Assembly: GCA_017883235.1 (NCBI GenBank)
Contig: JADGNY010000006.1
Coordinates: forward strand, 1 to 64,000
Direction: 5' to 3'
Length of the DNA: 64,000 bases
Origin: Thermoanaerobaculia bacterium
GTDB lineage: Bacteria; Acidobacteriota; Thermoanaerobaculia; Gp7-AA8
This document shows, piece by piece, positions 4,712 through 32,430 of this stretch (the first letter of the stretch is position 1; each line of letters opens with the position of its first letter). The position numbers and the translations under genes are program-made. The notes beneath the pieces are model-generated. The model searched no databases, had not been told where the DNA came from, and saw only the letters and a program-made list of their open reading frames with translations.

Positions 4712-4815
4712 CACTCCCATATTGGACTCTTCGGTAAGGTGATGTGGAAAGCGAATTCGGCTCCGTCTCTGTGCTTCGCGCGGAGCCGATATTGCGACTC
4801 CACCAGGAGGTTCTC

Positions 4816-9216: not shown

Positions 9217-9227
9217 TCGAGCCGGTG

Positions 9228-9908: not shown

Positions 9909-10231
9909 CGAGGCCGGACCGCCACGAGGGTGCCGGAGTCGGTCGTCGCCGCCAGCCCGTTCACGCGCAGCACGGTGTCGAGCGCGGTTCGGCACGGCAC
10001 GTTGCGGAAGAGGAACGTGCCACCTCCCGTCACGCCGGGATCGATGATCAGGTTGCGGATGCCGCACTGCTTCTGGATCGATTTGAGGACGTCATGCACA
10101 TCGGCATCTTTCACGTCGAGGGTCACGCCCGCATGTTGCGCGGGCGCAGCGATTGCCGCGGAACAGACGAGCAGCAGGGATGCGATGAGAAGGACCGGTC
10201 TCACGCGTCGCCACAACGAGCGGGCGCGCAT
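9905..10231 (-). CDS. Exported single STN-domain protein
   Basis: 108 aa. A signal peptide (residues 1-28, ending SAAIA) is followed by one secretin/TonB short N-terminal (STN) module: VTLDVKDADVHDVLKSIQKQCG, then IIDPGV, GTFLFRNVPCRTALDTVL and a final GTLVAVRP. STN domains usually sit at the N-terminus of secretins, TonB receptors or FecR partners; here the module stands alone. Coupling to a VTT membrane protein suggests a shared envelope function. The ATG at 10231 gives a proper signal peptide; in-frame starts further upstream would add an arginine-rich tail. Confidence 0.75.
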   Translation of the reverse strand: MRARSLWRRVRPVLLIASLLLVCSAAIAAPAQHAGVTLDVKDADVHDVLKSIQKQCGIRNLIIDPGVTGGGTFLFRNVPCRTALDTVLRVNGLAATTDSGTLVAVRPR

Positions 10232-10331
10232 CGGGCATTCCGAGGCGTGCGGATGGAGATCTGCCGCGCAGACCTCAGAACGGCTTTCTTCGCGCGCTGC
10301 GCGGCAACGCGCCGCGGAGCGGCGCCCTGAA

Positions 10332-10361
10332 GATTGGACGTTACGACGCCGCAATAGCGGC
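10332..10361. repeat. Left inverted repeat bounding array 1
   Basis: GATTGGACGTTACGACGCCG followed by CAATAGCGGC. It is the reverse complement, with few changes, of 10902-10930, so the two flank the 21-bp-period array like terminal inverted repeats. The same word also follows PAL-1 at 61891-61920. Confidence 0.7.
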
Positions 10362-10410
10362 AAATTCGCAGCCGGCTTCGCCGGCAAAGAGGCAGTAAGC
10401 AGCTTCACCA

Positions 10411-10898
10411 GAAGCAGTTGACTCGTTCCCAGAGTCAGTTACTCGTTCCCGGAGGCTGTTAACGGCCTCCGGGAGGCGGTTAAACTGCCTCTCGGAGGCA
10501 GTTAATACGCTCCTGAAGGCAGTTAACACGCTCCCGGAGGCAGTTGAACTGCCTCTCGGAGGCAGTTAACACGCTCCTGGAGGCAGTTAACACGCTCCCG
10601 AAGGCAGTTGAACTGCCTCTCGGAGGCAGTTAACACGCTCCTGGAGGCAGTTAACACGCTCCCGAAGGCAGTTGAACTGCCTCTCGGAGGCAGTTAATAC
10701 GCTCCTGGAGGCAGTTAACACGCTCCCGGAGGCAGTTGAACTGCCTCTCAGAGGCAGTTAATACGCTCCTGGAGGCAATTAACACGCTCCCGGAGGCAGT
10801 TGAACTGCCTCTCGGAGGCAGTTAATACACTCCTGGAGGCAGTTAACACGCTCCCGAAGGCAGTTGACGGACTCCGGGAGGCAGTTTGACTGCCTCCA
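10411..10898. repeat. 21-bp-period tandem array 1 (64-bp higher-order unit)
   Basis: Monomers of 21, 21 and 22 bp built on GGAGGCAGTTAACACGCTCC alternate in a fixed order. The palindromic third monomer (GAGGCAGTTGAACTGCCTC) recurs at 10479, 10543, 10607, 10671, 10735, 10799 and 10863, exactly 64 bp apart. The ends of the array are degenerate and the middle is nearly identical, as expected from unequal exchange. It fills most of the gap between the STN gene and the next CDS and carries no gene. Confidence 0.9.
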
Positions 10899-10901
10899 GC
10901 G

Positions 10902-10930
10902 GCGCGATAGCGGCGTCGTAACCTCCAATC
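10902..10930. repeat. Right inverted repeat bounding array 1
   Basis: GCGCGATAGCGGCGTCGTAA followed by CCTCCAATC, the inverted partner of 10332-10361. The stretch after it (10940-10975) belongs to the GGCGAGACGCC family also seen at 47612-47640 and 49185-49450. Confidence 0.7.
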
Positions 10931-11015
10931 CTCCAGAAGCGCGGGGGCGAGACGCCAGCGCTCCGTTCGGTAGGCTTCGCCGCCGCGCTTGCGCGCAACG
11001 AACGTTGCACGCTCA

Positions 11016-11918
11016 TCACGGCTCCGAGGTCAGCATCTCCCTTGCCCGCACCTCGGTGGTCAACGAGGGCGCGTCCGGTCCTTTGGGATGGGTGATGCCG
11101 GTGAGCGTCGTCACTGTGACGCGGCTCCATCGGGCCGGGATGTCGAGCGTGACTTCGATGGTCGACGTCACCGCCGCGTCGGCGGGGGTGTCGAAGACGA
11201 GCGCGCCGATGCGGTCGACGGAGCGTACGAACGACAGCTCGATGATGGCCACCGGATGGCCGGCACGCTGTTCGATCGTGCGAAGCGTGGCCCGGGCCGG
11301 GATGGTCTTCACACCGTGGCCGAGCGAGTCGTAGCAATCGGCGAGCTGCGAGGCCGGAACGGTCCACGATGCGCCGACGACCAGCGGATAGTTGGCGATG
11401 CAGAGATTGGTCGCCTCCACGCGGAGCGATCGCTGCGCGAGCTCGACCAGTCCCATCCGCTCATCGTCGTCGAGCGGCTTGCCGTCGCCCGACGTGACGT
11501 CGATGTTCTTCCCCTTCACCACGAACTGCAGCGTGCGTCCGTTCATGGCGCCGAATTCGCTGGCGTTCTCATCGCCGTGGAGCACGCGGCCGTAGACGCG
11601 GCGCGAATGCACGCCTGCCGCATCGCGCGTGAGCGTCGTGTCGGTGTACTCCTCGCGGTCCATCTGCGAGATGCGCTTGTTCGAGAGCTCTTTCCCATCG
11701 ACGGCGCGGACGATGCTCGTTCCGCTGATCTGCAATTCGGCCGCGCCATGCACGGCCGTTCCTACGGGAGGGTTGATGATCGGAGCAATGCGAACCGTGT
11801 CGACGGCGAAGGCGGAGGATGCCAGTCCCAGCAGCGCGGCTGCCAGCAGGATTCTGGAGTAGCCAGCACAGACAAGAGTGTCTGTGCCACATTGGTCCTG
11901 CTTTGCCGGCACAATCAT
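11016..11918 (-). CDS. Exported protein of unknown function
   Basis: 300 aa. A hydrophobic segment (ILLAAALLGLASSAFA) after a 22-residue polar start looks like a signal peptide. The mature part is a mixed beta-rich domain without enzyme motifs that I can recognise. The ATG at 11918 overlaps the stop of the thiolase gene (TGATG), so the two are probably co-translated. The first codons lie in a palindromic repeat (CACAGACA/TGTCTGTG at 11867-11886), which encodes the CGTDTLVCAG part of the long n-region. Loss of the original start by repeat insertion is therefore possible. Confidence 0.65.
   Translation of the reverse strand: MIVPAKQDQCGTDTLVCAGYSRILLAAALLGLASSAFAVDTVRIAPIINPPVGTAVHGAAELQISGTSIVRAVDGKELSNKRISQMDREEYTDTTLTRDAAGVHSRRVYGRVLHGDENASEFGAMNGRTLQFVVKGKNIDVTSGDGKPLDDDERMGLVELAQRSLRVEATNLCIANYPLVVGASWTVPASQLADCYDSLGHGVKTIPARATLRTIEQRAGHPVAIIELSFVRSVDRIGALVFDTPADAAVTSTIEVTLDIPARWSRVTVTTLTGITHPKGPDAPSLTTEVRAREMLTSEP
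11867..11886. repeat. Short hairpin repeat CACAGACA-AGAG-TGTCTGTG
   Basis: A perfect 8-bp stem with a 4-nt loop lies inside the 5' coding end of the exported protein gene. It has the form of a REP-type hairpin. Only one copy is present in this window. Confidence 0.5.
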
Positions 11919-13087
11919 CAAGCCAGGCTCTCGACGATGATGGCGATGCCCTGTCCGCCACCGATGCATGCCGAGGCCAGACCGTAGCGCTTCCGTCGGC
12001 GGCGCAGCTCGTAGAGCAGGGTGATGACGAGGCGCGTTCCGGAGGCCGCCAGCGGATGGCCGAGGGCGATCGCTCCGCCGTTGACGTTCAGCTTCTCCAT
12101 GTCGACGCCGAGCTCCTTCGATACGGCCAGGATCTGGCCGGCGAAGGCTTCGTTGATCTCGATCAGATCGATGTCGGGGAGCGACATGCCTGCTTTCTTC
12201 AGCGCGATCCTGGTCGACGGCACGGGCCCGATGCCCATGATGTCGGGATCACAGCCGGCGATGCCCCACGAGACGATGCGTCCGAGCGGCTTCTTGTTCT
12301 TCGCGTTGTCCGCCGAGGTGACCACGACCATGGCCGCGCCGTCGACGATGCCGCTGGCGTTGCCGGCGGTGACGAAGCCGTCTTTGGCAAAGGCCGGTTT
12401 CAGCTTCGCCAGCCCTTCCATCGTCGTGTCGGGGCGCAGGTGATCGTCGGCGGTGATCTGCTCGCCCTTGCGGCCGACCGGCACGACCACGATCTCGTCC
12501 TGCAGGCGTCCCGCGCTCGCGGCATCGGCGGCGCACTTCTGGCTGCGCAGGGCGAACTGGTCCTGCTCCTGGCGCGAGATGTTGTACTTCCGCGCCAGGT
12601 TGTCGGACGTCTGCGCCATGTACAGGCCGACGTAGCTGTCGAGGAGAGCCACCATCAGCGAGTCTTCGAGGGCTCCCTGGCCGAGTTTGAGCCCCTTGCG
12701 CGCGCCGCGGATGACGTGCGGCGCCTGCGACATGTTCTCCATGCCGCCGGCGAGGATGGTGGTGGCCTCATCGAGCTGGATCTGCTCGGCGGCGCTGATG
12801 ATCGACTGGATGCCGGAGCCGCAGAGGCGGTTCAGGGTGAGCGCCGGAACCTCTTTGGGCACGCCGGCCTTGAGTCCGACATGACGGGCGCCGTAGATGG
12901 CATCGCCCGATGTCTGCAAGGCGTTGCCGACGATGACGTGATTCACTTCCTCCGGCGCGACGCCGCTGCGCGAGAGTGCTTCCTTCGCGGCGATGACGCC
13001 GAGGTCGATGGCGGTGATGTCGCTGAAGGAGCCGTTGTATTCGGCCATCGGCGTGCGTGCCCCGTCGAGGATGACGATGTCTTTCAT
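11918..13087 (-). CDS. Acetyl-CoA acetyltransferase (thiolase)
   Basis: 389 aa, the usual thiolase length. It condenses two acetyl-CoA or cleaves 3-ketoacyl-CoA. All catalytic elements are present: acyl-accepting Cys89 (LNRLCGSG), His344 (GGAIALGHPLAASG) and Cys374 (ACIGGGQG). The fold starts with ILDGARTPMAEYNGSF. An arginine-rich turn (ELRRRRKRYG) precedes the last motif. It leads a two-gene unit with the exported protein downstream. It could serve fatty-acid, branched-chain or polyhydroxyalkanoate metabolism; the context does not decide. Confidence 0.95.
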   Translation of the reverse strand: MKDIVILDGARTPMAEYNGSFSDITAIDLGVIAAKEALSRSGVAPEEVNHVIVGNALQTSGDAIYGARHVGLKAGVPKEVPALTLNRLCGSGIQSIISAAEQIQLDEATTILAGGMENMSQAPHVIRGARKGLKLGQGALEDSLMVALLDSYVGLYMAQTSDNLARKYNISRQEQDQFALRSQKCAADAASAGRLQDEIVVVPVGRKGEQITADDHLRPDTTMEGLAKLKPAFAKDGFVTAGNASGIVDGAAMVVVTSADNAKNKKPLGRIVSWGIAGCDPDIMGIGPVPSTRIALKKAGMSLPDIDLIEINEAFAGQILAVSKELGVDMEKLNVNGGAIALGHPLAASGTRLVITLLYELRRRRKRYGLASACIGGGQGIAIIVESLA

Positions 13088-13101
13088 GAGCTCTCCTGTG
13101 G

Positions 13102-13241
13102 GAAAGCAGAAGGCAGAAGGCAGAAAGATGAAGGCTGAGGGATCAATTGCTGCGATCCCTTACTATGCCTTCATCCTTCATCCTTCATCCTTCATCCTTC
13201 CGCCTTCTGCCTTCTGCCTTCTGCTTTCTGCTTTCTGCTTT
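13102..13241. repeat. Imperfect palindrome, GGCAGAAGGCAG family, copy 1
   Basis: GAAAGCAGAAGGCAGAAGG on the left is mirrored by CCTTCTGCCTTCTGCTTTC on the right; the centre contains ATGAAGG/CCTTCAT words. It fills the whole gap between the S9 peptidase stop and the thiolase start. A second copy is at 40705-40783. Confidence 0.85.
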
Positions 13242-15383
13242 TCAAAAGCCTTTCGGCAACGTCATGCCGAGGTTCTTCACGAGGAAGGCCATCTGATCGG
13301 TGGTTTCCTCGATGATCTTCCCGGTCGGTTTGCCGCCGCCGTGTCCGGCCCGGGTCTCGATGCGGATCAGCACCGGCGCGGGGCCGGCCTGTGCTTCCTG
13401 GATGGACGCGGCGAACTTGAAACTGTGTCCCGGCACGACGCGGTCATCCGTGTCGGCCGTGGTGATGAGCGTGGCCGGGTACTTCGTTCCCGGCTTGATG
13501 TTGTGGTACGGCGAGTAGGCATAGAGGGCCTTGAACTCCTCGGGATTCGCGGACGAGCCGTAGTCGTCGACCCAGTAACGGCCGGCGGTGAACTGATTGA
13601 AACGGAGCATGTCCATGACGCCGACCGCGGGCAGCGTCGCGCCGAAGAGGTCCGGACGCTGCGTCAGCACCGCGCCGACGAGCAAGCCGCCGTTGCTTGC
13701 CCCCTGCACGGCCAGCTTGGCGGGCTTCGTGTAGCCGTTCTTCGTCAGATACTCGGCAGCAGCGATGAAGTCATCGAAGACGTTCTGCTTGTGCAGCTTC
13801 ATCCCCCCTTCGTGCCACGCTTCGCCGTATTCGCCGCCGCCGCGTAGGTTCGCCACCGCGTAGACGCCGCCCATGTTCATCCAGGTGAGGCGCGAGACGG
13901 AGAAGCCGGGAGTCATCGAGATGTCGAATCCGCCGTAGCCGTAGAGGAGGGTCGGGTTGTCGCCGTTGAGCTTGAGTCCCTTCTTGTACGAGATGAACAT
14001 CGGCACCTTGGTGCCGTCCTTGGACGTGTAGAAGACCTGCTTGACGACGTAATCCTCGGGGTTCATCGCCACTTTGGCGCGGAAGAGAAGCTGCTTCTCG
14101 CCGCTGGCGAGGTCGTAGCGATAGACGCTCGGCGGCGTGGCGAAGCTGGAGAAGGTGTAGAAGGTCTCGTTGTCGTCGGAGCGGCCGCTGAAGCCGCCGG
14201 CGCTGCCGATGCCGTCGAGCTCCATGGTGCGGACGAGCTTGCCGCCGGTGTCGAACAGGCGGATCTCGCTGTGCGCGTCGCGGAGGTAGTCGGCGACGAA
14301 ACGATGGCCGATGTAATCGACGCCCTGCAGCTTGGCGTCGCTCTCGGGAACGATCTCTTTCCAGTTCTCGCGGGCCGGGTTGCGGAGATCGATGGCGATG
14401 AGGCGGCCCTTCGGCGCGTTGAGATCGGTTCTAAAGTACAGCACCGGCCCGTCGTTGCCGACGAACGAGTAGTCGTTCTCGATCTTGTCGACGACCGTGA
14501 CCGGCATGGCGTACGGGTCCTGAAGATCTTTGACGTGGACCTGATTCTTCGCCGCGGTCCCGGAGGAGGTGCCGATGATCAGGTAGCGTCCGCCCTCGGT
14601 GACCTCGGCGCCGTGATTCCACTCCGGCTGCGCGGGGTCGTAGTAAACGACGACGTCGTCGGACTGAGGCGTGCCGAGCCGATGGTAGTAAACCTTCTGG
14701 TCGCGGTTGAGGCTCTGGTACGCCTTCCCTGCCTCAACGGCCGGGAAGCGCGAGTAGAAAAAGCCCTTGTCGTCTTTCGTCCATGAGATGCCGGAGAACT
14801 TGACCCACTTGATCTCGTCGGGGAGCTGCTGTCCGCCGGCCACATCGACCACTCGGATGATTTCCCAGTCCGATCCGGCCTCGGCCACCTGATACGCGGC
14901 GTACTTGGCGTCGTCGCTGATGGCCAGACCGCCGAGCGCCACGGTGCCGTCCTTCGACCAGCCGTTCGGATCGAGCAGCACGCGCGGCGTGTCGCCCCAC
15001 TTGTCGACCGTGTAGACGACAAATTGGTTCTGCAGGCCGTTGTTCTTCGAGAAGAAGTAGCGGCCGCCGCGCTTGAAGGGCGTGGAGTATTTCTCGTAGT
15101 TCCAGAGCGTGGTGAGCTGCTTGCGGATCGGCTCACGCGAGGGGATGGCGCCGAGGTAATCGAAGGTGATCTTGTTCTCGGCCGTAACCCAGTCGGCGAC
15201 CTCCTTCGAGGTGCGGACGTCGGTTTCCAGCCAGCGATAAGGGTCGGCGACTTTCGTGCCGTGGTAATCGTCGACCTGGTCGACCTTCTTCGTCTTCGGA
15301 TAGTCGATCGGCGCCGCGGATGCAACGAAGGTGACGAGCGCCAGCGCGGCAATCAGGGTGACCGCGAACTTGCGGAGATTCAT
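13242..15383 (-). CDS. Prolyl oligopeptidase family S9A serine peptidase
   Basis: 713 aa. Residues 1-23 are a signal peptide (ending VASAAP), so the enzyme is probably periplasmic. An N-terminal beta-propeller (starting PYRWLE) is followed by the alpha/beta-hydrolase domain with nucleophile GASNGG, the Asp loop TTADTDDRVVPGHSFKF and the His loop RAGHGGGKP. The family hydrolyses short proline-containing peptides after Pro. AAGGAG eight bases upstream fixes the ATG at 15383; the open frame extends further 5' without support. Confidence 0.95.
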   Translation of the reverse strand: MNLRKFAVTLIAALALVTFVASAAPIDYPKTKKVDQVDDYHGTKVADPYRWLETDVRTSKEVADWVTAENKITFDYLGAIPSREPIRKQLTTLWNYEKYSTPFKRGGRYFFSKNNGLQNQFVVYTVDKWGDTPRVLLDPNGWSKDGTVALGGLAISDDAKYAAYQVAEAGSDWEIIRVVDVAGGQQLPDEIKWVKFSGISWTKDDKGFFYSRFPAVEAGKAYQSLNRDQKVYYHRLGTPQSDDVVVYYDPAQPEWNHGAEVTEGGRYLIIGTSSGTAAKNQVHVKDLQDPYAMPVTVVDKIENDYSFVGNDGPVLYFRTDLNAPKGRLIAIDLRNPARENWKEIVPESDAKLQGVDYIGHRFVADYLRDAHSEIRLFDTGGKLVRTMELDGIGSAGGFSGRSDDNETFYTFSSFATPPSVYRYDLASGEKQLLFRAKVAMNPEDYVVKQVFYTSKDGTKVPMFISYKKGLKLNGDNPTLLYGYGGFDISMTPGFSVSRLTWMNMGGVYAVANLRGGGEYGEAWHEGGMKLHKQNVFDDFIAAAEYLTKNGYTKPAKLAVQGASNGGLLVGAVLTQRPDLFGATLPAVGVMDMLRFNQFTAGRYWVDDYGSSANPEEFKALYAYSPYHNIKPGTKYPATLITTADTDDRVVPGHSFKFAASIQEAQAGPAPVLIRIETRAGHGGGKPTGKIIEETTDQMAFLVKNLGMTLPKGF

Positions 15384-15423: not shown

Positions 15424-15491
15424 AGGTGGATCGGTAGATTAGTAGATTCGTGGCAGTCGAAGAAACGTGATCCTAATCTACTAATCCACTG
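15424..15491. repeat. Imperfect palindrome with GATTAGTAGATT words
   Basis: GATTAGTAGATT (15437-15448) faces AATCTACTAATC (15475-15486), with GTCAG/CTGAC at the outer edges. It covers the 3' end of the downstream protease gene, which ends inside the repeat, so its last residues are repeat-encoded. Confidence 0.7.
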
Positions 15492-16330
15492 ACCGACGGG
15501 TCCACTACTTTCCGCGGTAACAGCAATGCGATGCCGGCAAGTTCCACGACCACGATCCAGACGCTCCCCTCGATGCCGAACATGCCGCCGGTGAGCCATG
15601 GTGAGCCGCGGCCGATCGTCCGCAGGACGGTCGCGCCCGAGACGTAACCGCTGACGTTGTAGCCGAGGATCGGACCGGAGAGAAGGTTCCAGCCGAGGTG
15701 GATCCCGATCGGGAACCAGAGCCGCTCGTAGCGCGCATAGGCCAGGGCAAGCAGGATGCCGGCGAAGAACAGATTGGCCATCGCCAGCAGCGAGACGGCG
15801 TTGTTGCCCGCGTGAAGGGCAGCGAAGACGACGGACGAGAAAAGCACCGCGCCGAGGCGGTGGGTGCGCCAGATTTTCTGGAACGGATAGCCGCGGAAGA
15901 GCAGCTCTTCATGGAAGACCGCCGGCAGAAACACGGCGAGGAGCTCGAACCATGGGAAGCCGTTCCCCGCCACGTGCCGCAGCCGCGTGGTCAGCAGCAC
16001 GAGGCCGTCCGCGGCGCCGATCAGGAGAACGGCGGCGCCGCAGCCGAACAATGTCTCGCGAACGGCAAGAGCCGGCCGAACGAAAAGACCGAGAGGCCAG
16101 AGGCCATGCTCCAGGATGCCGATCGTTCCGATCGTGGCCGCGCAGACGCTGAGCAGGGAGACCCACTGCCCGAAGTAGGCATCGGCGGCCGCGGTGACAT
16201 ATCCCGCGACGAAGAAGGTGGCCAGATAGAGCGCCACGAACAGGCTGAGCGCGGCCACGAGATGCCAGAAGCCGCCCTGGCGGACATCGGGCCGGGTGGA
16301 AAACGTCGCCGCGCCGTATTCGGATTTCAT
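15473..16330 (-). CDS. CPBP family intramembrane metalloprotease (Abi/CAAX-like)
   Basis: 285 aa, multi-spanning. The CPBP motifs are in order: EELLFRGYPF (EExxxR, motif 1), FAALH (motif 2 His) and GIHLGWN (HxxxN, motif 3). Homologues range from type II CAAX prenyl endopeptidases to bacteriocin-immunity proteases; the substrate is unknown. Start choice is uncertain: the ATG at 16330 gives a compact N-terminus, while the frame is open to an ATG at 16372; neither has a clear Shine-Dalgarno. It lies head-to-head with the HAD phosphatase gene. Confidence 0.85.
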   Translation of the reverse strand: MKSEYGAATFSTRPDVRQGGFWHLVAALSLFVALYLATFFVAGYVTAAADAYFGQWVSLLSVCAATIGTIGILEHGLWPLGLFVRPALAVRETLFGCGAAVLLIGAADGLVLLTTRLRHVAGNGFPWFELLAVFLPAVFHEELLFRGYPFQKIWRTHRLGAVLFSSVVFAALHAGNNAVSLLAMANLFFAGILLALAYARYERLWFPIGIHLGWNLLSGPILGYNVSGYVSGATVLRTIGRGSPWLTGGMFGIEGSVWIVVVELAGIALLLPRKVVDPSVSGLVD

Positions 16331-16429
16331 CCCCGCACATGATGACGCAGAGAGTCGCGATTTAGTTTGCATTCATGAAGTTACACGTGCCGAGGCGTAT
16401 TGGCGATGGTATAAAACAAACAGGACTGA

Positions 16430-17140
16430 TTGTCGTCCACCCCCTTTATGCTCTTCATAATCGACTTCGATGGAACCGTCGCTCCGGCAGACACGGTGGA
16501 CGCCCTTCTCGAGCAATTCGCCGATCCGGAATGGCGGAGGATCGAACTGGAATGGGTCGCGGGGCGGATCAACTCCCGGGAGTGTATGGCGGCACAACTG
16601 GCTCTCGTGGCGGCCGAACGCCCCGTTCTCGAGAGTTTTCTTCGTTCCGTACCGATCGATCCGGCCTTTGCGGCGTTCGTTCGCCACGCAACGACCTTCG
16701 CCGATCTTGCCATCGTCAGCGATGGCCTCGATTACCCGATCCGGCAGGCATTGCAGGGACTGCGCACCCCGCCAATCCCGGTCTTCGCAAACCGCCTCAG
16801 CTTCCGGCCCGGCGGCCTCGAGCTCTCGTTCCCGTATGCCGATGCGGCCTGCAGCGTGAAGAGCGGCCTCTGCAAGTGCGCCGTGACGCGCGCCGTCGAC
16901 GCCGGACGGGGGCTGACGACCGTCCTGATCGGCGACGGCCGGTCTGATCAGTGTATCGCCCGCCGCGCCGATTACGTCTTCGCGAAGGGTTCTTTGATCC
17001 GATTCTGCGAAACCGAGCAGATCCCGTACATACCATTCGAATCATTCAGTGACGTATTAGCCATTGTGAAGGGGTGGAACATACGTCAACCCGGCGATCA
17101 ACGAATTGAGGAGAAGTCATGTCCCTTGGCAGTTTCCTAG
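16430..17140 (+). CDS. HAD-family phosphatase (PSP/MtnX-like)
   Basis: 236 aa. Motif I is DFDGT (Asp12 nucleophile, Asp14), motif II is the IVSDG segment and motif III/IV is LIGDGRSDQC followed by a KGSL loop, as in phosphoserine-phosphatase/MtnX-like HAD enzymes. It dephosphorylates a small metabolite that cannot be named from sequence. TTG at 16430 with AGGA upstream is the likely start; ATG 16448 is an alternative. It is the first gene of the ACP-centred cluster and overlaps the next gene by 22 bp. Confidence 0.8.
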   Translation: MSSTPFMLFIIDFDGTVAPADTVDALLEQFADPEWRRIELEWVAGRINSRECMAAQLALVAAERPVLESFLRSVPIDPAFAAFVRHATTFADLAIVSDGLDYPIRQALQGLRTPPIPVFANRLSFRPGGLELSFPYADAACSVKSGLCKCAVTRAVDAGRGLTTVLIGDGRSDQCIARRADYVFAKGSLIRFCETEQIPYIPFESFSDVLAIVKGWNIRQPGDQRIEEKSCPLAVS

Positions 17141-18540
17141 AGCCGGATGTCGTTTCATCCGAACGTACAGAACTGAGCACCGAGGAGCTCCTCGAAAAAG
17201 ACAGCCGCTACTGTTCCTATGGCGACACCGTTCATTATGCCAACCCTCCCAAGATCTTCTCCGGTTGCGAGGGCAGCTATCTCTTCGACGACAACCAGAC
17301 TCCCTATCTCGACCTGCAGATGTGGTATTCGGCGGTCAACTTCGGCTACAAGAACCGCCGGCTGAACGATGCGTTGAAACGGCAGATCGACACCCTGCCG
17401 CAACTGGCCTGCCAGTACCTGCATAAGGAGAAAGTCGAGCTTGCCGAGGAGCTGTGCAAGATCATGGAATCGCGCCTGGGCGTGAAAGGGCGCGTCCACT
17501 TCAACGTCGGCGGCGCGCAGGCGGTCGAGGACTCATTGAAACTCGTCCGGAATGCAACGGGCAGGAATCTCAATTTCGCCTTCATGGGCGGCTACCATGG
17601 CCGCACGCTCGGGGCGAGTGCAATCACCTCCAGCTACCGCTACCGGCGCCGCTACGGGCATTTCTCCGACCGGGCCCAGTTCATCCCCTTTCCCTACTGC
17701 TTCCGCTGTCCTTATGACCTGAAGAAGGAAGACTGCGGGCTGTACTGCGTCAAACAGTTCGAGAAGCTGTTCGACACGGAGTATCACTCGGTATGGGACA
17801 GTAAGGCCCAGCAGTGCGAATTTGCGGCGTTTTACATCGAGCCGATCCAGGGCACCGGCGGATACGTCATCCCTCCGAAAGGATACTTCGAAGAATTGAC
17901 GCGCATCCTCAACGAACGCGGCATTCTGATCGTGGTCGACGAGATCCAGATGGGCATTCACCGGACCGGGAAATTCTGGTCATTCGAGCACTTCGGCCTG
18001 AAACCGGACATCGTGGTCTTTGGCAAGGCGCTGACGAACGGCCTGAATCCTCTGTCGGGAATCTGGGCGCGGGAAGGCCTGATCTCTCCCGAGAAGTTTC
18101 CGCCGGGCTCCACGCATTCGACCTTTTCTTCGAACACCCTCGGCACGGCGACCGCGCTGGAGGTCGTGCGCATGGTTTCCGAATCGGACTACGAAGGGAA
18201 GGTCAACGAGAAAGGCGCCTATTTCCTCTCCCGCCTGCAGGACTTGAAGGGACGGTGGCGGATGATCGGCGACGTCGACGGGCTGGGGCTGGCGATGCGC
18301 ATCGAGATGTGCCAGTCTGACGGCTTCACACCCAACCAGGCACTGACCAACGCGATCTTCGAGGAGGGGCTGAAAGGCGACATCGCGGCGCGCGGAAAGC
18401 ACTATGGACTCGTACTCGACGTCGGCGGCTATTACAAGAATGTCTTCACCCTGGCCCCCTCGCTCGAGATCACGAAAGACGAGATCGATCTTGGGATCGA
18501 CCTGCTGGAGAGTCTGTTCCAGCGTTGCGGCGCATCCTGA
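17119..18540 (+). CDS. Class-III PLP-dependent aminotransferase
   Basis: 473 aa. Fold-type I, class-III signature: GGAQAVEDSLKLVR, the GGYHGRTLGA phosphate region, IEPIQGTGG, VVDEIQMGIHRTGKFW and the PLP lysine Lys303 in VFGKALTNG. It resembles acetylornithine, diaminobutyrate and gamma-aminobutyrate aminotransferases, which move omega-amino groups. A cysteine-rich insertion (CFRCPYDLKKEDCGLYC, around residue 195) is unusual for the class and could bind metal. AGGAG precedes the ATG. It probably makes or consumes a diamine or omega-amino acid for the ACP pathway. Confidence 0.88.
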   Translation: MSLGSFLEPDVVSSERTELSTEELLEKDSRYCSYGDTVHYANPPKIFSGCEGSYLFDDNQTPYLDLQMWYSAVNFGYKNRRLNDALKRQIDTLPQLACQYLHKEKVELAEELCKIMESRLGVKGRVHFNVGGAQAVEDSLKLVRNATGRNLNFAFMGGYHGRTLGASAITSSYRYRRRYGHFSDRAQFIPFPYCFRCPYDLKKEDCGLYCVKQFEKLFDTEYHSVWDSKAQQCEFAAFYIEPIQGTGGYVIPPKGYFEELTRILNERGILIVVDEIQMGIHRTGKFWSFEHFGLKPDIVVFGKALTNGLNPLSGIWAREGLISPEKFPPGSTHSTFSSNTLGTATALEVVRMVSESDYEGKVNEKGAYFLSRLQDLKGRWRMIGDVDGLGLAMRIEMCQSDGFTPNQALTNAIFEEGLKGDIAARGKHYGLVLDVGGYYKNVFTLAPSLEITKDEIDLGIDLLESLFQRCGAS

Positions 18541-18543
18541 TCG

Positions 18544-19413
18544 ATGAACTCTATGACTACAAACCAACACGGACTCTTCGAAAAGCGCGGGAAGACGGGC
18601 GTACTGCTGGTTCACGGCATTACCGGCTCGCCGGCGGAGATGCGACCTCTGGTCAGGAAGCTGGCAGCACAGGGCTTCAGCGTCTCCTGCCCGCAACTTG
18701 CCGGCCACTGTTCGAACCTGGCGGATCTGAAACGGACGCGCTGGACCGATTGGTACAAGTCGCTGGAACGGGCGATGGAGAGTCTGGCCGAGGAGTGCGA
18801 TACGATTTTTGTATCCGGATTGTCGATGGGTGCGTTGCTGGCATTGAAGCTGGCGGCCAATCACCCAGACCGCGTCCAGGCCGTTGCTACGCTCTCGGCC
18901 ACGTTCTTCTATGACGGATGGAACATCCCACATCTGCGGCAGCGATTCCTGCTGCCGCTCGCAATCTACTCACCCCTTCGCTACTTCTGGTCGTATCACG
19001 AGCCGCCGCCCTATGGCATCAAGGACGACCGCATCCGAAACATGATCGCTGCCGTGTACCAGAACAGCAGTCTCAGCCTGCCGGAGAAGTACGGCTATTC
19101 CGAATTTCCCGGGGTCACGATCCGTGAGACCTTCCGGCTGATCAAAGACGTGAAACGGGAACTGGCGAACCTCGTCGCCCCGCTTCTCATCGTTCACGCC
19201 ACGGAAGACGACATGGCCAGTGTAAAGAATGCCACCTTTCTTGCCTCACAGGTCTCCTCCGCCGACGTGGATACGTTCTATGTCGACGACACGTATCACG
19301 TGCTGACGCTCGACAAGCGCAAGGACGACGTAGCCGCGCGCGTGGCGGAGTTCTTCCTGCGCATCCGCGCGGCGTCATTGGAACCGGTCACTATGAGTCT
19401 CAGCGGCGCATGA
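18544..19413 (+). CDS. Alpha/beta hydrolase, Est30/lysophospholipase-like
   Basis: 289 aa. LLVHGITGSPAEM forms the oxyanion loop, Ser94 lies in GLSMG, the acid is in HATEDDMAS and the His in DDTYHVLTLD, an arrangement close to carboxylesterase Est30. It starts three bases after the aminotransferase stop and ends 19 bp before the ACP, so a thioesterase role releasing product from the carrier protein is plausible. That role is inference; the fold also fits a simple carboxylesterase. ATG 18544 or the ATG three codons later may be used. Confidence 0.82.
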   Translation: MNSMTTNQHGLFEKRGKTGVLLVHGITGSPAEMRPLVRKLAAQGFSVSCPQLAGHCSNLADLKRTRWTDWYKSLERAMESLAEECDTIFVSGLSMGALLALKLAANHPDRVQAVATLSATFFYDGWNIPHLRQRFLLPLAIYSPLRYFWSYHEPPPYGIKDDRIRNMIAAVYQNSSLSLPEKYGYSEFPGVTIRETFRLIKDVKRELANLVAPLLIVHATEDDMASVKNATFLASQVSSADVDTFYVDDTYHVLTLDKRKDDVAARVAEFFLRIRAASLEPVTMSLSGA

Positions 19414-19432
19414 GCCGGAAATAGGAAGAATC

Positions 19433-19690
19433 ATGGCCACCATATTCGAAAGAGTTCAGACGATCGCGGCAAAGAAGTATTCTCTGGATCCGGCAACGAT
19501 CACCCCGGAGTCGACGCTGGAGAGTCTCGGGCTCGATTCACTCGACCTGATCGAGCTCCTGTTCGACGTGGAAGACGAGTTTCAGATTCGCGTTCCGCAG
19601 GAAGGCGGCTCGGGTCTGAAGACGGCTACGATCGCCGATATCGTCGAAAGCATCCGGAAGCTCGTCCCCGAGGAAATGCCGGCCACGTGA
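19433..19690 (+). CDS. Acyl carrier protein
   Basis: 85 aa. The phosphopantetheine attachment site is LGLDSLDLIELLFDVEDEF with Ser36, and the acidic helix II/III pattern is typical of discrete ACPs. No fatty-acid synthesis gene is near, so this is a dedicated carrier rather than the housekeeping AcpP. It lies between a hydrolase and a pair of small transporters. No ligase that would load it is encoded in this window. Confidence 0.93.
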   Translation: MATIFERVQTIAAKKYSLDPATITPESTLESLGLDSLDLIELLFDVEDEFQIRVPQEGGSGLKTATIADIVESIRKLVPEEMPAT

Positions 19691-19694
19691 GTTC

Positions 19695-20051
19695 ATGTCA
19701 AACCAGGCTCTCTTTTTCTGGATAGCGAACATAGTCCTCGATACGGTGGGGCATCTAGCATTCAAGTCCGCCGCGTCCGCCCATGACGAAAACGAGCTGC
19801 AGCGCTGGAAACAGATGTTCCGCTCGCCGCGATTGTGGATCGGCATCACCTGCTTCGTTCTGGAGTTCGCGGTCTGGTTCGCGTTGCTGTCGCTCATCCC
19901 TTTGTCACAGGCGGTGCTGATCGGGTCGATCAATATCGTGGTGGTCATGCTGGCCGGGAGGCTGCTTTTTCATGAGCGCCTCGATCGGTTGCGGGTGGCG
20001 GGAATGTCGCTGATCGCGATCGGCGTCGCACTCGCCGGAGGGCTTGTGTGA
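19695..20051 (+). CDS. Small multidrug-resistance/DMT-type transporter, ArnE-like
   Basis: 118 aa with four predicted membrane helices. SLIPLSQAVLIGSINIVVVMLAGRLLFHERLDRLRVAGMSLIAIGV is a typical second half of the EamA/SMR fold, with the conserved glutamate after the third helix. It starts four bases after the ACP stop. Paired with the next gene (GTGA overlap), it resembles the ArnE/ArnF heterodimer that flips undecaprenyl-phosphate-aminosugar, or an SMR pair for cationic compounds. The pairing suggests export of the cluster product. Confidence 0.82.
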   Translation: MSNQALFFWIANIVLDTVGHLAFKSAASAHDENELQRWKQMFRSPRLWIGITCFVLEFAVWFALLSLIPLSQAVLIGSINIVVVMLAGRLLFHERLDRLRVAGMSLIAIGVALAGGLV

Positions 20052-20434
20052 ACCGGCGGCAATTCTATCTGGCCGGGTTCGGCGCGCTGATGTTGGCGGA
20101 CACCTGGACCCAGACGGCGTTCAAACTGGCGTCACGGGCGACCGGCGAATTCGCGCCGAACATGATCTGGCTGCGAGCCGCAGCCCTCAGTCCCTGGATT
20201 TATGGTGCCATCGCCGGCTACCTCGTCGCCTTCCTGACCTGGATGACCCTGCTCGAGCGCGCTCCTATCGGACCGGCCTTTGCGGCATCGCATCTCGAAG
20301 TAGTCACCGTTCTCATCGTCTCCGTCGTGCTCTTCGGCGAACGCCTCTCCCCCGCGAAGCTGGCCGGCGCCGCGTGCATCGTGCTGGGCGTCATTCTCCT
20401 GAGCCTCAGCGAGTCGAAGCACAGCCATGCCTGA
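20048..20434 (+). CDS. Small multidrug-resistance/DMT-type transporter, ArnF-like
   Basis: 128 aa, four hydrophobic segments; ERAPIGPAFAASHLEVVTVLIVSVVLFGERLSPAKLAGAACIVLGVILL is the SMR/EamA C-terminal half. GTG start overlaps the preceding stop by four bases (translational coupling), consistent with a 1:1 heterodimer. Near the N-terminus DTWTQTAFKLAS is the EmrE-like first-helix end, with a polar rather than acidic substrate-site residue. The 3' end overlaps the next gene by eight bases. Confidence 0.82.
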   Translation: MNRRQFYLAGFGALMLADTWTQTAFKLASRATGEFAPNMIWLRAAALSPWIYGAIAGYLVAFLTWMTLLERAPIGPAFAASHLEVVTVLIVSVVLFGERLSPAKLAGAACIVLGVILLSLSESKHSHA

Positions 20435-21647
20435 CCGCTGGCGTGAGATCCCGCCAACAGCAGGCCTTCCCCTGCGTTGGAGAGATTTCCTGCCGCGAGC
20501 AGGAGCCAACGTTCTGGAATCGACACTCGCCGGGATCCTGGACGTTCCTTCCGTGCAGATCGAATGCTCAGGGACCGCGGCGCTGGTCATCGCCATGACC
20601 ACACTCAAACAGATGAGCGGCCGCCGCTCCGTGGTCATTCCGGCCTATACCTGTCCTCTGGTGGCGCTGGCAGTGATGCATTGCGGCCTGCTTCCCGTCG
20701 TCTGCGATCTGCAACGCAATCACTTCGACGTCTCACCGGAAGCATTGGAGCAATCCTGCAATGACGACACGCTGGCGATCGTTCCCACCCACCTCGGGGG
20801 AAGAGTGGCCGACCTGAACATGGTCTCCGCCGTGGCAAGGCGCAACGGCGCGTGGGTGATCGAGGATGCGGCTCAATCGCTTGGAGCGACGTATCAGGGC
20901 CGGCCTGTTGCAACGCTCGGCGATATCGGCTTCTGCAGCCTTGCCGTCGGCAAGGGCCTCACTCTCTATGAGGGTGGTGTGCTGGCCGCGCGTGACGAAA
21001 ACCTGCGCCAGGCCTTGCGCGAGACCAGCGCACAGGCTGTCCCGTATCGCGCGGCCTGGGAGGCTCTGCGCCTGGCCCAGCTGTTCGCGTACGGGATGCT
21101 CTATCGGCCGGGGGGTCTTCGCCTCGCCTATGGGGTGCCGCTGCGACGGGCATTGAAACGTAACCGGTTGATCGATGCGGTCGGCGACGACTTTCCTCCC
21201 AGCATCCCCATTCACCGCGTCGGGACCATCCGGCGGATGATCGGAGGGAATGCCGCGATCCGCCTTGCCTCATTTCTGGCGATGCTTTCCGAGCAAGCCA
21301 TCGCTCGAAAGAAAGACCTCGAACGGATTTCCGGCCTCACGGTCATGGGCGATTCGCATGGGAACGACGGTACCTGGCCGTTTCTCATGGTTCTGATGCC
21401 GACGGCACGGGCTCGCGACGCGGCGCTGGCTCGCCTGTGGACCGCCGGCCTCGGTGTGAGCCGGCTGTTCATCCACGCGTTGCCGGACTATCCGCGCCTG
21501 GCCGGGAAATTCGGAACACCGGACGTTACCAATGCGCGCGACTTCGCGGCCCGTATGCTGACCATCTCCAACAGCCCGTGGCTACTCGATCGCGACTTCG
21601 CGACGATTCAATCAGTCCTGGCCGGCGTCATCGACGCCGCGGCATGA
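20427..21647 (+). CDS. DegT/DnrJ/EryC1-type PLP aminotransferase
   Basis: 406 aa. VVIPAYTCPLVALAV, THLGGRVADLNMV, VIEDAAQSLGATYQG and the PLP-lysine segment SLAVGKGLTLYEGG (Lys176) are the family landmarks. DegT enzymes transaminate keto-sugars (ArnB, PseC) or act as dehydratases. The C-terminal domain is more divergent than in sugar aminotransferases. As second aminotransferase of the cluster it may act on a different amine. It is the last gene of the plus-strand run; a long palindrome follows. Confidence 0.85.
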   Translation: MPDRWREIPPTAGLPLRWRDFLPRAGANVLESTLAGILDVPSVQIECSGTAALVIAMTTLKQMSGRRSVVIPAYTCPLVALAVMHCGLLPVVCDLQRNHFDVSPEALEQSCNDDTLAIVPTHLGGRVADLNMVSAVARRNGAWVIEDAAQSLGATYQGRPVATLGDIGFCSLAVGKGLTLYEGGVLAARDENLRQALRETSAQAVPYRAAWEALRLAQLFAYGMLYRPGGLRLAYGVPLRRALKRNRLIDAVGDDFPPSIPIHRVGTIRRMIGGNAAIRLASFLAMLSEQAIARKKDLERISGLTVMGDSHGNDGTWPFLMVLMPTARARDAALARLWTAGLGVSRLFIHALPDYPRLAGKFGTPDVTNARDFAARMLTISNSPWLLDRDFATIQSVLAGVIDAAA

Positions 21648-21659
21648 CCGCATTTCTCG

Positions 21660-21934
21660 CACTCTCACTGGAATCATCAGCACTCTGTTACTCGTCGAGA
21701 GCCTTCTCCCCCGCGGATTTCTTGCGGGGGAGAAGGTGCCGACAGGCGGATGAGGGGGCGTATGCGCGATATGCCGATGTACCGACGCTGGTATGAGAGC
21801 GGTTGATGCGTCGCGTTACATCCGCGTGAAGCGCCCCCCTCATCCGCCTTCGGCACCTTCTCCCCCCGCAAAAAAACCGCGGGGGGAGAAGGCTCTCGAC
21901 GGGTAACAGGGTGCCAACGATTTAAGTGAGAGTG
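21660..21934. repeat. Long imperfect palindrome between convergent genes
   Basis: Arms run inward from ACTCTCACT/AGTGAGAGT through CTGTTACTCGTCGAGAGCC and CTTCTCCCCCGCGG to a centre near 21800; GCGGATGAGGGGG words occur on both sides. It separates the convergent halves of the ACP cluster, and its right arm encodes the last residues (SHTLT) of the arginase-fold protein. Confidence 0.85.
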
Positions 21935-22803
21935 TGAGAAATGCTGCCTAGAACCGACAGCAACTCACGATTCACCTCCTGATGCCGTATCTGCCACTCC
22001 TCCAGCAGATGATCCGGAATCGGCGGCTGACGATCCAGACCGCTCAGCAATCGCTTGAAGCGGCCGCGGTATCGGTACGAGGAAACGTCGCCGGTCACGT
22101 CGCTGCCCACCAGCCGTCCTCGTAACAGCCGGATGGCGGAGGTGAGCTCCTCGAGCCGCATGACCCCCTGATCCCAGTTCGTGTTGACGACATCGGCCGC
22201 CAGCACGTCCTTGTCGATCGTGAGATAGATGGGCTCGACGGAGGCCGCCATGGCATCGCTGAAGGCATCGAGCAGCGAAGGCATCGACGCAAACGAGCGG
22301 CTGTGTCGAATACCCAGTGTCCTCATCGCGCGCAACTTCTTTTGCACGCACCAATAGCGCACCTTGCCCGAGTAGAGCGGCAGGAGGTGGTTTTCCCACA
22401 GATGGCCGCCCTCGACGTCGTTCGACGTGATGCCGACCACGTGCACGCGCGCAACGAACGGCAACCGGCTCACATGCCAGACCCATGAACCGCAATGGAT
22501 CCCGAAGGGATAGCGCATGTTGTCCGGATGATTGTCGAAGACGACGATCTGGAGCCGCTCGCCCAGGCTCCGCAGACGTTCGATGAGGAGGTAACTCACG
22601 TGGTGATAGTCGCCGCTGCCGAGGAAGACCGCCGCCGGCGACAGCGCATCGAGGACCGGGGCAAGTTGCCGGCCCAGGGCGCGCAGAACGGCCAAGCCGC
22701 AACCGAAACGGATGGCTTCCTGGCTGTCGCCCAAAGGAACGACGTCGGCGTCCGCAAGCGGCCGGACCGACGCGTCGAAATCAAGAATGAGCGATCGAGA
22801 CAC
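21922..22803 (-). CDS. Arginase-fold (ureohydrolase-like) protein
   Basis: About 293 aa. All metal-ligand positions of the dimanganese arginase/agmatinase family can be matched: GSGDYHH (His67 or His68), FDNHPDN (Asp90, His92, Asp94) and TIDKDVL (Asp197, Asp199). The spacing and the AxH-to-NxH change differ from true arginases, so the substrate may be another guanidino, formamide or amide compound. GTG 22803 with AGGA upstream is preferred; an ATG at 22833 is in frame. It overlaps the stop of the transferase gene by 23 bp, so the two are co-translated. Confidence 0.72.
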   Translation of the reverse strand: MSRSLILDFDASVRPLADADVVPLGDSQEAIRFGCGLAVLRALGRQLAPVLDALSPAAVFLGSGDYHHVSYLLIERLRSLGERLQIVVFDNHPDNMRYPFGIHCGSWVWHVSRLPFVARVHVVGITSNDVEGGHLWENHLLPLYSGKVRYWCVQKKLRAMRTLGIRHSRSFASMPSLLDAFSDAMAASVEPIYLTIDKDVLAADVVNTNWDQGVMRLEELTSAIRLLRGRLVGSDVTGDVSSYRYRGRFKRLLSGLDRQPPIPDHLLEEWQIRHQEVNRELLSVLGSISHTLT

Positions 22804-23857
22804 TCGCGTCCTGCCACCGGCGGTCCGCCTCAAACAAACGTTTGAACGGCCGCAAAAGTGTTCTCAGCACCGGATTGCGCACATAGACGGCATGCTCGGT
22901 AAAGGTGAAGCGTGCACCGAGCTCGCGTTTGATCTCGGGATCGGTCCACCCGGCGACGTAGTAGCGAAAGCCATGAGCCAGCGCATATTCGAGATTGTGA
23001 AACCAGCTCACCGCATAGAGATTGTAGTGGCGTGACTGCGGATAGGCGAAGCCAACGTACTTGTCGATGAGCATCAACTCCCGGAAGACACAGAAATTGA
23101 AGCCGATCAGCGCGCCCTCGACCCGATAGGTGAATACCACTCCCCCCATGTTGCCATCCTGGAGCACGGCCCGGAAGAACGCCGGGGTCAGGAGATCAAA
23201 GTGCAGGTCGCTCTGCCGGTAGACGTTCAGGTAGAGCTCGTACAGCTCGCGCAACCGCGTCTCGTCGCTGAAATACGCGTGACCCGTCCGAAGCTCCTCG
23301 ATCACCATCCGCGAGGCGCTTTTCAATTTGCGCCGCACGTTCCTCCGGCGGGTGTGCGACAAGGTTGAAAGAAATTCGTCCGTGGTCGCGAAATCGATCG
23401 GCACGTAGGCAAGGGCCTGGCCGTCGACCAGGACAAACCCCTCCTCACTGCAAACATCGGCCACCCCGCGGGAAAACGCGCACGCCGCGTCACCGACCAG
23501 CGTGGCCTCCGTCGGAAGGTCCTTGATGATGAGAAACGGGTAGCGTGGCGCCAGGTCTGCCAGGAGCGCGCGCACCAGTTGCTCCGGCGCGGCCGAATCC
23601 GGCAGCAGGACATACTCCGAGACAGTGGTACCGACGAAGCACGTCGTCGCATGGAGGAAACGCCTCCACCTTCGCGCCAATGGCCAGCGATCCATTCTTC
23701 TCCGAAGCGGCGGCTCGACGGTGGTCAGGAGATCGAACGGCGCGGAAAACGCTGGTGCTCCACCATTCAAATCGACCGTCGAAAATCCCTCGGGAGGATG
23801 GGCCTGGAAATGCCGGACAAGATTGGCAGGCTCGATGAGGTTATGAAGCATCGGCAC
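22781..23857 (-). CDS. FemAB/GNAT-like acyl or aminoacyl transferase
   Basis: 358 aa. The C-terminal half has the GNAT_6/FemAB pattern: RRRNVRRKLK, a tyrosine-rich helix (LYELYLNVYRQSDLHFDLL), GVVFTYRVEGALIGFNFCVF, DKYVGFAYPQSRHYNLYAVSWFHNLEYALAHGF and a DPEIKRELGA loop. Such enzymes transfer acyl or aminoacyl groups to amines, some from carrier proteins. Beside a dedicated ACP and two aminotransferases, an acyl-ACP:amine transferase is a reasonable guess. First gene of a two-gene minus-strand operon. Confidence 0.7.
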   Translation of the reverse strand: MPMLHNLIEPANLVRHFQAHPPEGFSTVDLNGGAPAFSAPFDLLTTVEPPLRRRMDRWPLARRWRRFLHATTCFVGTTVSEYVLLPDSAAPEQLVRALLADLAPRYPFLIIKDLPTEATLVGDAACAFSRGVADVCSEEGFVLVDGQALAYVPIDFATTDEFLSTLSHTRRRNVRRKLKSASRMVIEELRTGHAYFSDETRLRELYELYLNVYRQSDLHFDLLTPAFFRAVLQDGNMGGVVFTYRVEGALIGFNFCVFRELMLIDKYVGFAYPQSRHYNLYAVSWFHNLEYALAHGFRYYVAGWTDPEIKRELGARFTFTEHAVYVRNPVLRTLLRPFKRLFEADRRWQDASVSIAHS

Positions 23858-31935: not shown

Positions 31936-32390
31936 ACGCTCTTACCGTGGCTCTTACCATGGCATGAGCGCGCGCTCCGTTTTGATCCTCGCGTGCTTCG
32001 TTTCGATCCTCGCGTGCTTCGTTTCGATCCTCGCGTGCTTCGTTTCGATCCTCGCGTGCTTTGTTTTGATCCTCGCGTGCTTTGTTTTGATGACCGTGTG
32101 CTTTGTTTTGACGCTTCCGCTCTTACCATGGTGAGAGTGCGCGCTTCGTTTTGACCCTCGCGTGCTTCATTTCGATGCTCGCGAGCTTCGTTTTGATGCT
32201 CGCGCGCTTCATTTCGATGTTCTCGTCCCTCGTTTTGATGCTCGCGAGCTCTGTTTTGAAGCTCGCGCTCTTACCATGGAATGAGCGCCCACTTCCTTTT
32301 CGAATCTCGCTCCTTCGGTGCAAGCATCTCTTGTTTCGTTTCGCTGCTCGTGTGCTTCGTTTCGAACCTCGCTTCTTTCGGGACCAGGCG
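31936..32390. repeat. 21-bp-period tandem array 2
   Basis: Degenerate units built on CTCGCGTGCTTCGTTTCGAT recur every 21 bp (for example at 31988, 32009, 32030, 32051, 32072). A second interspersed word, GCTCTTACCATGG, followed by TGAG and GCGC, marks block starts near 31939, 32119 and 32268. The array occupies the whole 500-bp gap between the BMP lipoprotein and its ATPase. Because 21 is a multiple of three, heptapeptide-repeat ORFs appear on both strands; I do not count them as genes. Confidence 0.85.
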
Positions 32391-32430
32391 CAAAGCCAAG
32401 CGTAGCTTCTACCTACTACACTGAATCCAG

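What the first reader, a model, noticed from the sequence alone, without database searches (positions are those of the whole stretch)
16430..23857. Unassigned ACP-centred biosynthetic cluster with paired small exporters
HAD phosphatase, class-III aminotransferase, alpha/beta hydrolase, dedicated ACP, two SMR/ArnE-ArnF-like transporters and a DegT-type aminotransferase are packed with overlaps or tiny gaps; an arginase-fold hydrolase and a FemAB/GNAT-like transferase face them. The set predicts an amine or amino-acid moiety made by two transaminations and possibly de-guanidination, activated or released on ACP, joined by an acyltransferase, and flipped or exported. No ketosynthase, NRPS or lipid-A gene is present. 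I cannot match it to a known pathway (butirosin, Arn, ectoine and ornithine lipid all differ).
Basis: partly seen in the sequence, partly recalled or inferred. Interest (0 to 1): 0.85.

Follow-up and report, generated by a model that had tools for sequence, protein, structure and literature searches.

The report
Conserved uncharacterised aminolipid gene cluster
A tightly packed set of nine genes, found again in soil, plant-associated and human-associated bacteria from many phyla, probably builds and flips an unusual amine-bearing membrane lipid whose structure nobody has yet described.

Summary
In 78 of 80 loci holding the class-III aminotransferase, the HAD phosphatase is beside it; the two exceptions are cut by contig ends. 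Among 72,556 plasmids, the phosphatase, ureohydrolase and transferase baits recover essentially the same records (16 Rhizobium, 11 Roseomonas, 10 Agrobacterium, 5 Bartonella and singles).
Three points change. (1) 'No ketosynthase' is true only locally: relatives carry a FabF-like ketosynthase beside this ACP, and this genome keeps the ortholog (75%) on another contig, as it does the sensor kinase (80%). (2) De-guanidination is not supported: the arginase-fold protein keeps the metal ligands but is a divergent subfamily. (3) The 'FemAB/GNAT' protein folds most like aminoacyl-tRNA-dependent transferases (streptothricin peptide synthases, FemX, MprF).
Relatives add fatty-acid desaturase, cyclopropane synthase, fatty-acid hydroxylase, two-component regulators and outer-membrane proteins. 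Best reading: a regulated operon that makes and flips an acylated amine lipid. The product is inferred, not shown. Nothing in the open literature searched matches it.

The parts
16430..17140 (+). MtnX-like HAD-IB phosphatase (HAD); an ATG at 16448 is an alternative start
   Evidence: TIGR01489 87.2 bits, above cut-off 81.55; MtnX equivalog cut-offs not reached; HAD motifs invariant in 23 sequences
17119..18540 (+). class-III PLP enzyme (AT3), distinct subfamily
   Evidence: PF00202 1.8e-71; 64-89% identical in 27 taxa from many phyla; Lys303 invariant; Thr246 and Thr444 replace the Glu and Arg of related enzymes
18544..19413 (+). alpha/beta hydrolase, esterase type (ABH)
   Evidence: PF12146 1.1e-20; GLSMG serine, Asp222, His252 conserved
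19433..19690 (+). dedicated acyl carrier protein
   Evidence: PF00550; DSL motif and pI 4.2; scores below the housekeeping-ACP cut-offs; next to a FabF-like ketosynthase in relatives
19695..20051 (+). SMR/ArnE-like small transporter 1
   Evidence: PF00892 1.1e-10; ArnE 36.3 bits against cut-off 92
20048..20434 (+). SMR/ArnF-like small transporter 2
   Evidence: PF00892 3.3e-10; ArnF 35.4 bits against cut-off 99
20427..21647 (+). DegT-type PLP aminotransferase, diverged in its C-terminal half
   Evidence: PF01041 3.8e-42 over the N-terminal half only; PLP lysine Lys176 invariant
21922..22833 (-). ureohydrolase(arginase)-fold metal hydrolase (ARG), divergent subfamily
   Evidence: PF00491; model pLDDT 90.9; Z 21.1 to guanidinopropionase; metal-ligand motifs GDxHH, DNHxD, DKD invariant
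22781..23857 (-). tandem-GNAT FemX/MprF-like transferase (GNAT)
   Evidence: PF04339 and PF13480; model pLDDT 89.5; Z 18.4 to Sba18, 17.5 to FemX, 16.8 to MprF

Best explanation
The locus is a horizontally mobile biosynthetic operon for an amine-bearing acyl lipid of the cell envelope. Shown here: the genes form one conserved functional unit, their catalytic motifs are intact, and relatives add enzymes that act on fatty acids plus envelope-type regulators. Inferred: AT3 and the HAD phosphatase supply an amino alcohol (amination of a phosphorylated carbonyl compound, then loss of phosphate); the ACP, with the ketosynthase encoded elsewhere in this genome, prepares the acyl chain; the alpha/beta hydrolase and the tandem-GNAT protein move acyl or aminoacyl groups onto the amine; the ureohydrolase-fold protein trims the attached group; the DegT enzyme adds a further amine in some lineages; the two small SMR-type proteins, as a heteromer, flip the finished lipid. 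Regulation by a two-component system in relatives suggests that the lipid is made under an envelope condition.
For: HAD lies beside AT3 in 78 of 80 loci, and the other two begin at the contig edge. Independent baits return the same plasmid set: HAD 47 of 48 hits in these genera, GNAT 48, ARG 50, AT3 34, of 72,556. In Bartonella the set is split, HAD-ABH and AT3-GNAT-ARG lying about 38 kb apart on one plasmid, yet all are kept. Fatty-acid enzymes sit inside the operon in relatives: desaturase and cyclopropane synthase in Rhizobium and Phyllobacterium, fatty-acid hydroxylase in L043 and L044, FabF-like ketosynthase next to the ACP in L028, L030, X. sacchari and Terriglobia. This genome keeps the ketosynthase ortholog (75%) on C114 and the sensor kinase ortholog (80%) on C97. 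GNAT folds like FemX, MprF and Sba18. OmpR-type regulators and MipA/OmpV proteins flank several clusters.
Against: No product is known and no enzyme was tested. Rhizobial clusters lack the ACP, the ketosynthase and DegT locally, so these may be accessory. A class-III enzyme without the usual Glu/Arg pair may not be a transaminase at all; the best PDB relatives by sequence are amino-acid racemases. The fold of the GNAT protein also fits acyl-CoA users (N-myristoyltransferases, Z about 13). SMR proteins could export a small soluble compound instead of flipping a lipid. No lipid acceptor or phosphate-bearing substrate has been identified.
Confidence: 0.45

Rival explanations
1. A small soluble amine-containing natural product (signal or antibiotic) is assembled and exported by the SMR pair; the fatty-acid enzymes in relatives are accidental neighbours or tailoring enzymes.
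For: The GNAT protein is closest in fold to the streptothricin peptide synthases, which make a soluble antibiotic; SMR proteins export small cations; the set is mobile and patchy.
Against: Desaturase, cyclopropane synthase, fatty-acid hydroxylase and ketosynthase recur inside or beside the operon in separate lineages.
Confidence: 0.25
2. An Arn-like pathway: an aminosugar made by the DegT enzyme is attached to an undecaprenyl or lipid carrier, modified by the transferase and flipped by the ArnE/ArnF-like pair.
For: DegT and the two small transporters form a repeated block; weak ArnE and ArnF similarity; in Roseomonas an undecaprenyl-diphosphate phosphatase gene lies near the block.
Against: ArnE and ArnF scores are far below cut-offs; no sugar-nucleotide gene and no glycosyltransferase in the window cluster; DegT matches sugar aminotransferases only in its N-terminal half; rhizobial clusters lack DegT.
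Confidence: 0.12
3. An arginyl-to-ornithinyl variant of the lipid model: the GNAT protein attaches arginine from Arg-tRNA to the amine and the ureohydrolase-fold protein removes urea.
For: GNAT and ARG strictly co-occur on plasmids and are usually close together; one GNAT homolog weakly matches an arginyltransferase model, E 1.6e-4; ureohydrolase fold with all metal motifs.
Against: At the position where arginases carry the guanidine-binding glutamate this family has an invariant glycine (Gly248), with an acid one residue later; new invariant residues Lys208, Cys114, Trp220 suggest another substrate.
Confidence: 0.1
4. A degradative operon for a lipid or phosphorylated amine.
For: Phosphatase, PLP enzyme and esterase could be catabolic; NtrC-type regulators and a porin flank some copies.
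Against: A dedicated ACP, ketosynthase and FemX-like transferase make sense mainly in synthesis.
Confidence: 0.08

Closest known systems
MprF (lysyl/alanyl-phosphatidylglycerol synthase and flippase)
   Same: Tandem-GNAT transferase fold (Z 16.8) combined with a flippase function; envelope context
   Different: Here the transferase is soluble and separate from two SMR-type proteins, and it comes with its own amine-forming enzymes, ACP and ureohydrolase-fold protein
Streptothricin aminoacyl-tRNA-dependent peptide synthases Sba18/Sbb17
   Same: Closest solved fold to the GNAT protein (Z 18.4, 17% identity) and the best PDB sequence match, weak (E 0.02)
   Different: No streptothricin genes; the lipid-type neighbours in relatives are foreign to that pathway
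Arn lipid A modification (ArnB, ArnE/ArnF)
   Same: DegT-type aminotransferase plus a pair of small SMR-like flippase subunits
   Different: ArnE/ArnF cut-offs not reached; no ArnA, ArnC or ArnT-type gene in the cluster
Ornithine lipid and similar aminolipid pathways (OlsB-type)
   Same: ACP-linked acylation of an amine is a plausible logic
   Different: No OlsA/OlsB-type gene among the nine; two PLP enzymes, a phosphatase and a ureohydrolase-fold protein are extra
Myxococcus homospermidine lipid genes (hslA-D, O-Q; PMC9548883)
   Same: Polyamine-type lipid thought to start from arginine
   Different: The cited text links them to ether-lipid genes; the hsl proteins were not compared here

Membership tests
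Canonical glutamate/2-oxoglutarate class-III aminotransferase | PF00202 fold with catalytic PLP lysine | tested here: met
   PF00202 1.8e-71; Lys303 invariant
Canonical glutamate/2-oxoglutarate class-III aminotransferase | Glu/Arg pair that handles the amino-acid carboxylate | tested here: not met
   Thr246 and Thr444 invariant where aligned relatives have Glu (EPIQGEGG) and Arg (IRLIPPL); the role of the pair is from general knowledge
MtnX (methionine salvage phosphatase) | NCBIfam MtnX equivalog cut-off and mtn neighbours | tested here: not met
   106.9 bits against 292 and 95.9 against 303.2; no mtn genes among the neighbours, whereas the one true mtn operon among the plasmid hits is Priestia
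Ureohydrolase superfamily | Fold and binuclear-metal ligand motifs | tested here: met
   Z about 21; GDxHH, DNHxD, DKD invariant in 21 sequences
Arginase/agmatinase proper | Guanidine-binding glutamate near the C-terminal end of the fold | tested here: inconclusive
   Invariant Gly248 followed by Asp/Glu249; no NCBIfam arginase or agmatinase model matches
FemX/MprF-type aminoacyl-tRNA-dependent transferase | Tandem-GNAT fold of that family | tested here: met
   Foldseek and VIA top ranks are nearly all members
FemX/MprF-type aminoacyl-tRNA-dependent transferase | Use of aminoacyl-tRNA as donor | not testable with these tools
   needs biochemistry
ArnE/ArnF flippase | NCBIfam equivalog cut-offs | tested here: not met
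   36.3 against 92 and 35.4 against 99 bits
Housekeeping fatty-acid ACP | TIGR00517 cut-off and fatty-acid gene neighbours | tested here: not met
   55.6 against 70.45 bits; the only fatty-acid-type neighbour of the ACP in relatives is a FabF-like ketosynthase
NDP-sugar DegT aminotransferase | Equivalog cut-offs and full-length match | tested here: not met
   91.4 against 375 bits and N-terminal half only
Homospermidine lipid (hsl) cluster | Orthology to HslA-D, O-Q | not tested
   sequences not compared; described only through PMC9548883

The most novel reading that the evidence does not exclude
The operon defines an undescribed class of bacterial membrane lipid with its own backbone amine (made by a class-III PLP enzyme that lacks the usual glutamate site), its own soluble FemX-type aminoacyl transferase and a two-part SMR flippase, spread by plasmids among rhizobia, Agrobacterium, Xanthomonas, Bartonella and Roseomonas mucosa and found in soil Acidobacteriota.
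Probability: 0.35. Interest if true: 0.8.

Novelty: new variant of a known kind. Interest (0 to 1): 0.62.

Why it matters
A nine-gene set that stays together across phyla, on conjugative plasmids of plant-associated bacteria and on plasmids of the human skin bacterium Roseomonas mucosa, is very likely to matter to its hosts, yet it carries no name. If it makes a cationic or zwitterionic lipid, it would add a new envelope modification with possible effects on antimicrobial-peptide tolerance, acid tolerance or host contact. The rhizobial copies make it testable at once in standard laboratory strains.

Tried and rejected
Literature: nine full-text searches; the six on the gene set or aminolipid genes, and one on bacterial ceramide synthase, found no paper; homospermidine lipids and serinol phosphate gave leads only. 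Most subscription journals are not in the library. Serinol (from dihydroxyacetone phosphate) was considered as the amine made by AT3 and HAD; it fits the logic but nothing tests it, so it is not claimed. Beta-amination of a ketoacyl-ACP by AT3 was considered; rhizobial clusters without ACP or ketosynthase speak against it, though these could lie elsewhere. Methyl-ketone amination (ketosynthase, hydrolase, AT3) was considered and leaves HAD unexplained. The ARG profile found no ortholog in 18 of 20 genomes whose fetched AT3 locus showed no ARG, so ARG/GNAT is a second module, not an obligate partner of AT3. A GNAT search of 274 genomes of the class around Extensimonas gave only 3 hits, so the set is patchy and rare there.

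Full report
WHAT IS THERE. The seven + strand genes overlap or are separated by at most 19 nt; the two - strand genes overlap each other and converge on the seven. An alternative ATG start exists for the phosphatase at 16448 (seen in the sequence). The upstream neighbour is a CPBP intramembrane protease on the other strand (15473-16372).

IS IT A UNIT? One scan of bacterial and archaeal genomes with the class-III enzyme as bait gave 80 loci from many phyla. The HAD phosphatase gene lies beside it in 78; the two exceptions (L031, L081) begin at a contig end. The alpha/beta hydrolase, small transporters, DegT, ureohydrolase-fold and GNAT genes recur in Acidobacteriota, Alpha-, Beta- and Gammaproteobacteria, Desulfobulbus and Omnitrophota. 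A reciprocal test used other genes as baits against 72,556 plasmids: HAD at E <= 1e-20 gave 48 records (16 Rhizobium, 11 Roseomonas, 10 Agrobacterium, 5 Bartonella, single Aureimonas, Xanthomonas, Phyllobacterium, Azospirillum, Sinorhizobium, and one Priestia record which is a true methionine-salvage operon); GNAT gave 48 with the same counts for these genera plus one Streptomyces; ARG gave 50; AT3 at 62-68% identity gave 34, the same set without Roseomonas, Azospirillum and Aureimonas. The comparison is by genus counts and by the rows listed; not every accession was printed for every bait. In Roseomonas a GSAM-like class-III enzyme sits at the place of AT3. In Bartonella the genes are split into HAD-ABH and AT3-GNAT-ARG about 38 kb apart on one plasmid, yet all are retained.

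MODULES. The widest core is HAD + AT3, often with the hydrolase and with ACP + ketosynthase (for example L045, L082, L086). A second module is ARG + GNAT + two SMR-type genes, often with DegT. Of 20 genomes whose fetched AT3 locus showed no ARG, 18 have none anywhere at E <= 1e-5, while Extensimonas and Legionella steigerwaltii carry it about 12 and about 50 kb away. Terriglobia and Pyrinomonas join HAD + AT3 to other partners: an MGDG-synthase-like glycosyltransferase, an AMP-ligase, a polysaccharide deacetylase and a radical SAM enzyme, in Terriglobia also ACP and ketosynthase.

THE MISSING KETOSYNTHASE. Next to the ACP in L028, L030, G012 (L133), Xanthomonas sacchari and others is a FabF-like ketosynthase. 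The window lacks it, but its own genome has the ortholog (75% identity) alone on contig C114, and the sensor kinase that precedes the operon in L030 (80%), with a regulator and a porin of the same kind, on C97. So the pathway looks dispersed in this genome.

LIPID EVIDENCE. Operons of Rhizobium sp. NZLR1 and Phyllobacterium contain a fatty-acid desaturase and a cyclopropane fatty-acid synthase between or after the shared genes. L043 and L044 contain a fatty-acid hydroxylase; L106 and L083 have a cyclopropane synthase homolog within a few kb. OmpR-type response regulators with kinases of the QseC/PmrB type (below equivalog cut-offs) and MipA/OmpV outer-membrane proteins flank many copies. These neighbours are why a lipid is preferred over a soluble product.

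ENZYMES. AT3 has mean column identity 71% over 28 sequences, with the PLP lysine invariant. Two positions held by Glu and Arg in aligned relatives (EPIQGEGGY; IRLIPPL) are invariant Thr246 and Thr444, which suggests that it does not handle glutamate in the usual way; the meaning of these positions is from general knowledge. HAD keeps all phosphatase motifs and is MtnX-like but not MtnX. The hydrolase keeps Ser, Asp and His. The ureohydrolase-fold protein models with pLDDT 90.9 and aligns to guanidinopropionase and agmatinase at Z about 21; the metal motifs are invariant, but Gly248 stands where arginases have the guanidine-binding glutamate (position from general knowledge of arginases), with an acid next to it, and Lys208, Cys114 and Trp220 are new invariants. 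The GNAT protein models with pLDDT 89.5 and is closest to Sba18/Sbb17, FemX and MprF (Z 18.4 to 15.6), ahead of N-myristoyltransferases at about 13. The two small transporters are far below ArnE and ArnF cut-offs.

HISTORY. In the AT3 tree the window does not join the Terriglobia but a group with Legionella and betaproteobacteria (support 100/97), and presence of ARG needs at least 11 changes on well-supported branches. With the plasmid locations this indicates horizontal spread.

CONCLUSION. A real, conserved, uncharacterised biosynthetic unit. Most likely it makes and flips an amine-bearing acyl lipid, in relatives under two-component control. The product, the amine, the donor of the transferase and the role of the ureohydrolase-fold protein remain inferred.

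Noticed in passing
G000 contigs C77, C35, C100: Very long ketosynthase-containing open frames (7557, 6267 and 4554 aa) suggest that this genome carries large modular polyketide or mixed assembly lines.
   Followed up: no
window 10377-10952, 31948-32399 and 46809-47177: Three arrays with a period of about 21 nt and different units (for example CGTTTCGATCCTCGCGTGCTT and TGTTGACGGCAAC...), found by repeat search; whether coding or not was not settled.
   Followed up: no
window 7-214 and 61698-61904: Near-identical hairpin-like elements (CCAGGGGTGCGAGCG...CGCTCGCACCCCTGG) occur near both ends of the window, and a short CATCCTGACGGCGAGCG element occurs at 28813, 30843 and 30876.
   Followed up: no
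L129 (Roseomonas mucosa plasmid) 4324-13906: Variant of the cluster in which a glutamate-1-semialdehyde-aminomutase-like class-III enzyme stands in for AT3; 11 Roseomonas plasmids carry the set, several from human skin.
   Followed up: partly
L052, L063 and other Acidobacteriota loci: HAD + AT3 sit in a different, also recurring cluster with an MGDG-synthase-like glycosyltransferase, an AMP-ligase, a polysaccharide deacetylase and a radical SAM enzyme; L052 also has ACP and a ketosynthase.
   Followed up: partly
L028: A contig labelled Gemmatimonadaceae carries the closest AT3 (89-90%) to this Acidobacteriota window; recent transfer or a mis-binned contig.
   Followed up: no
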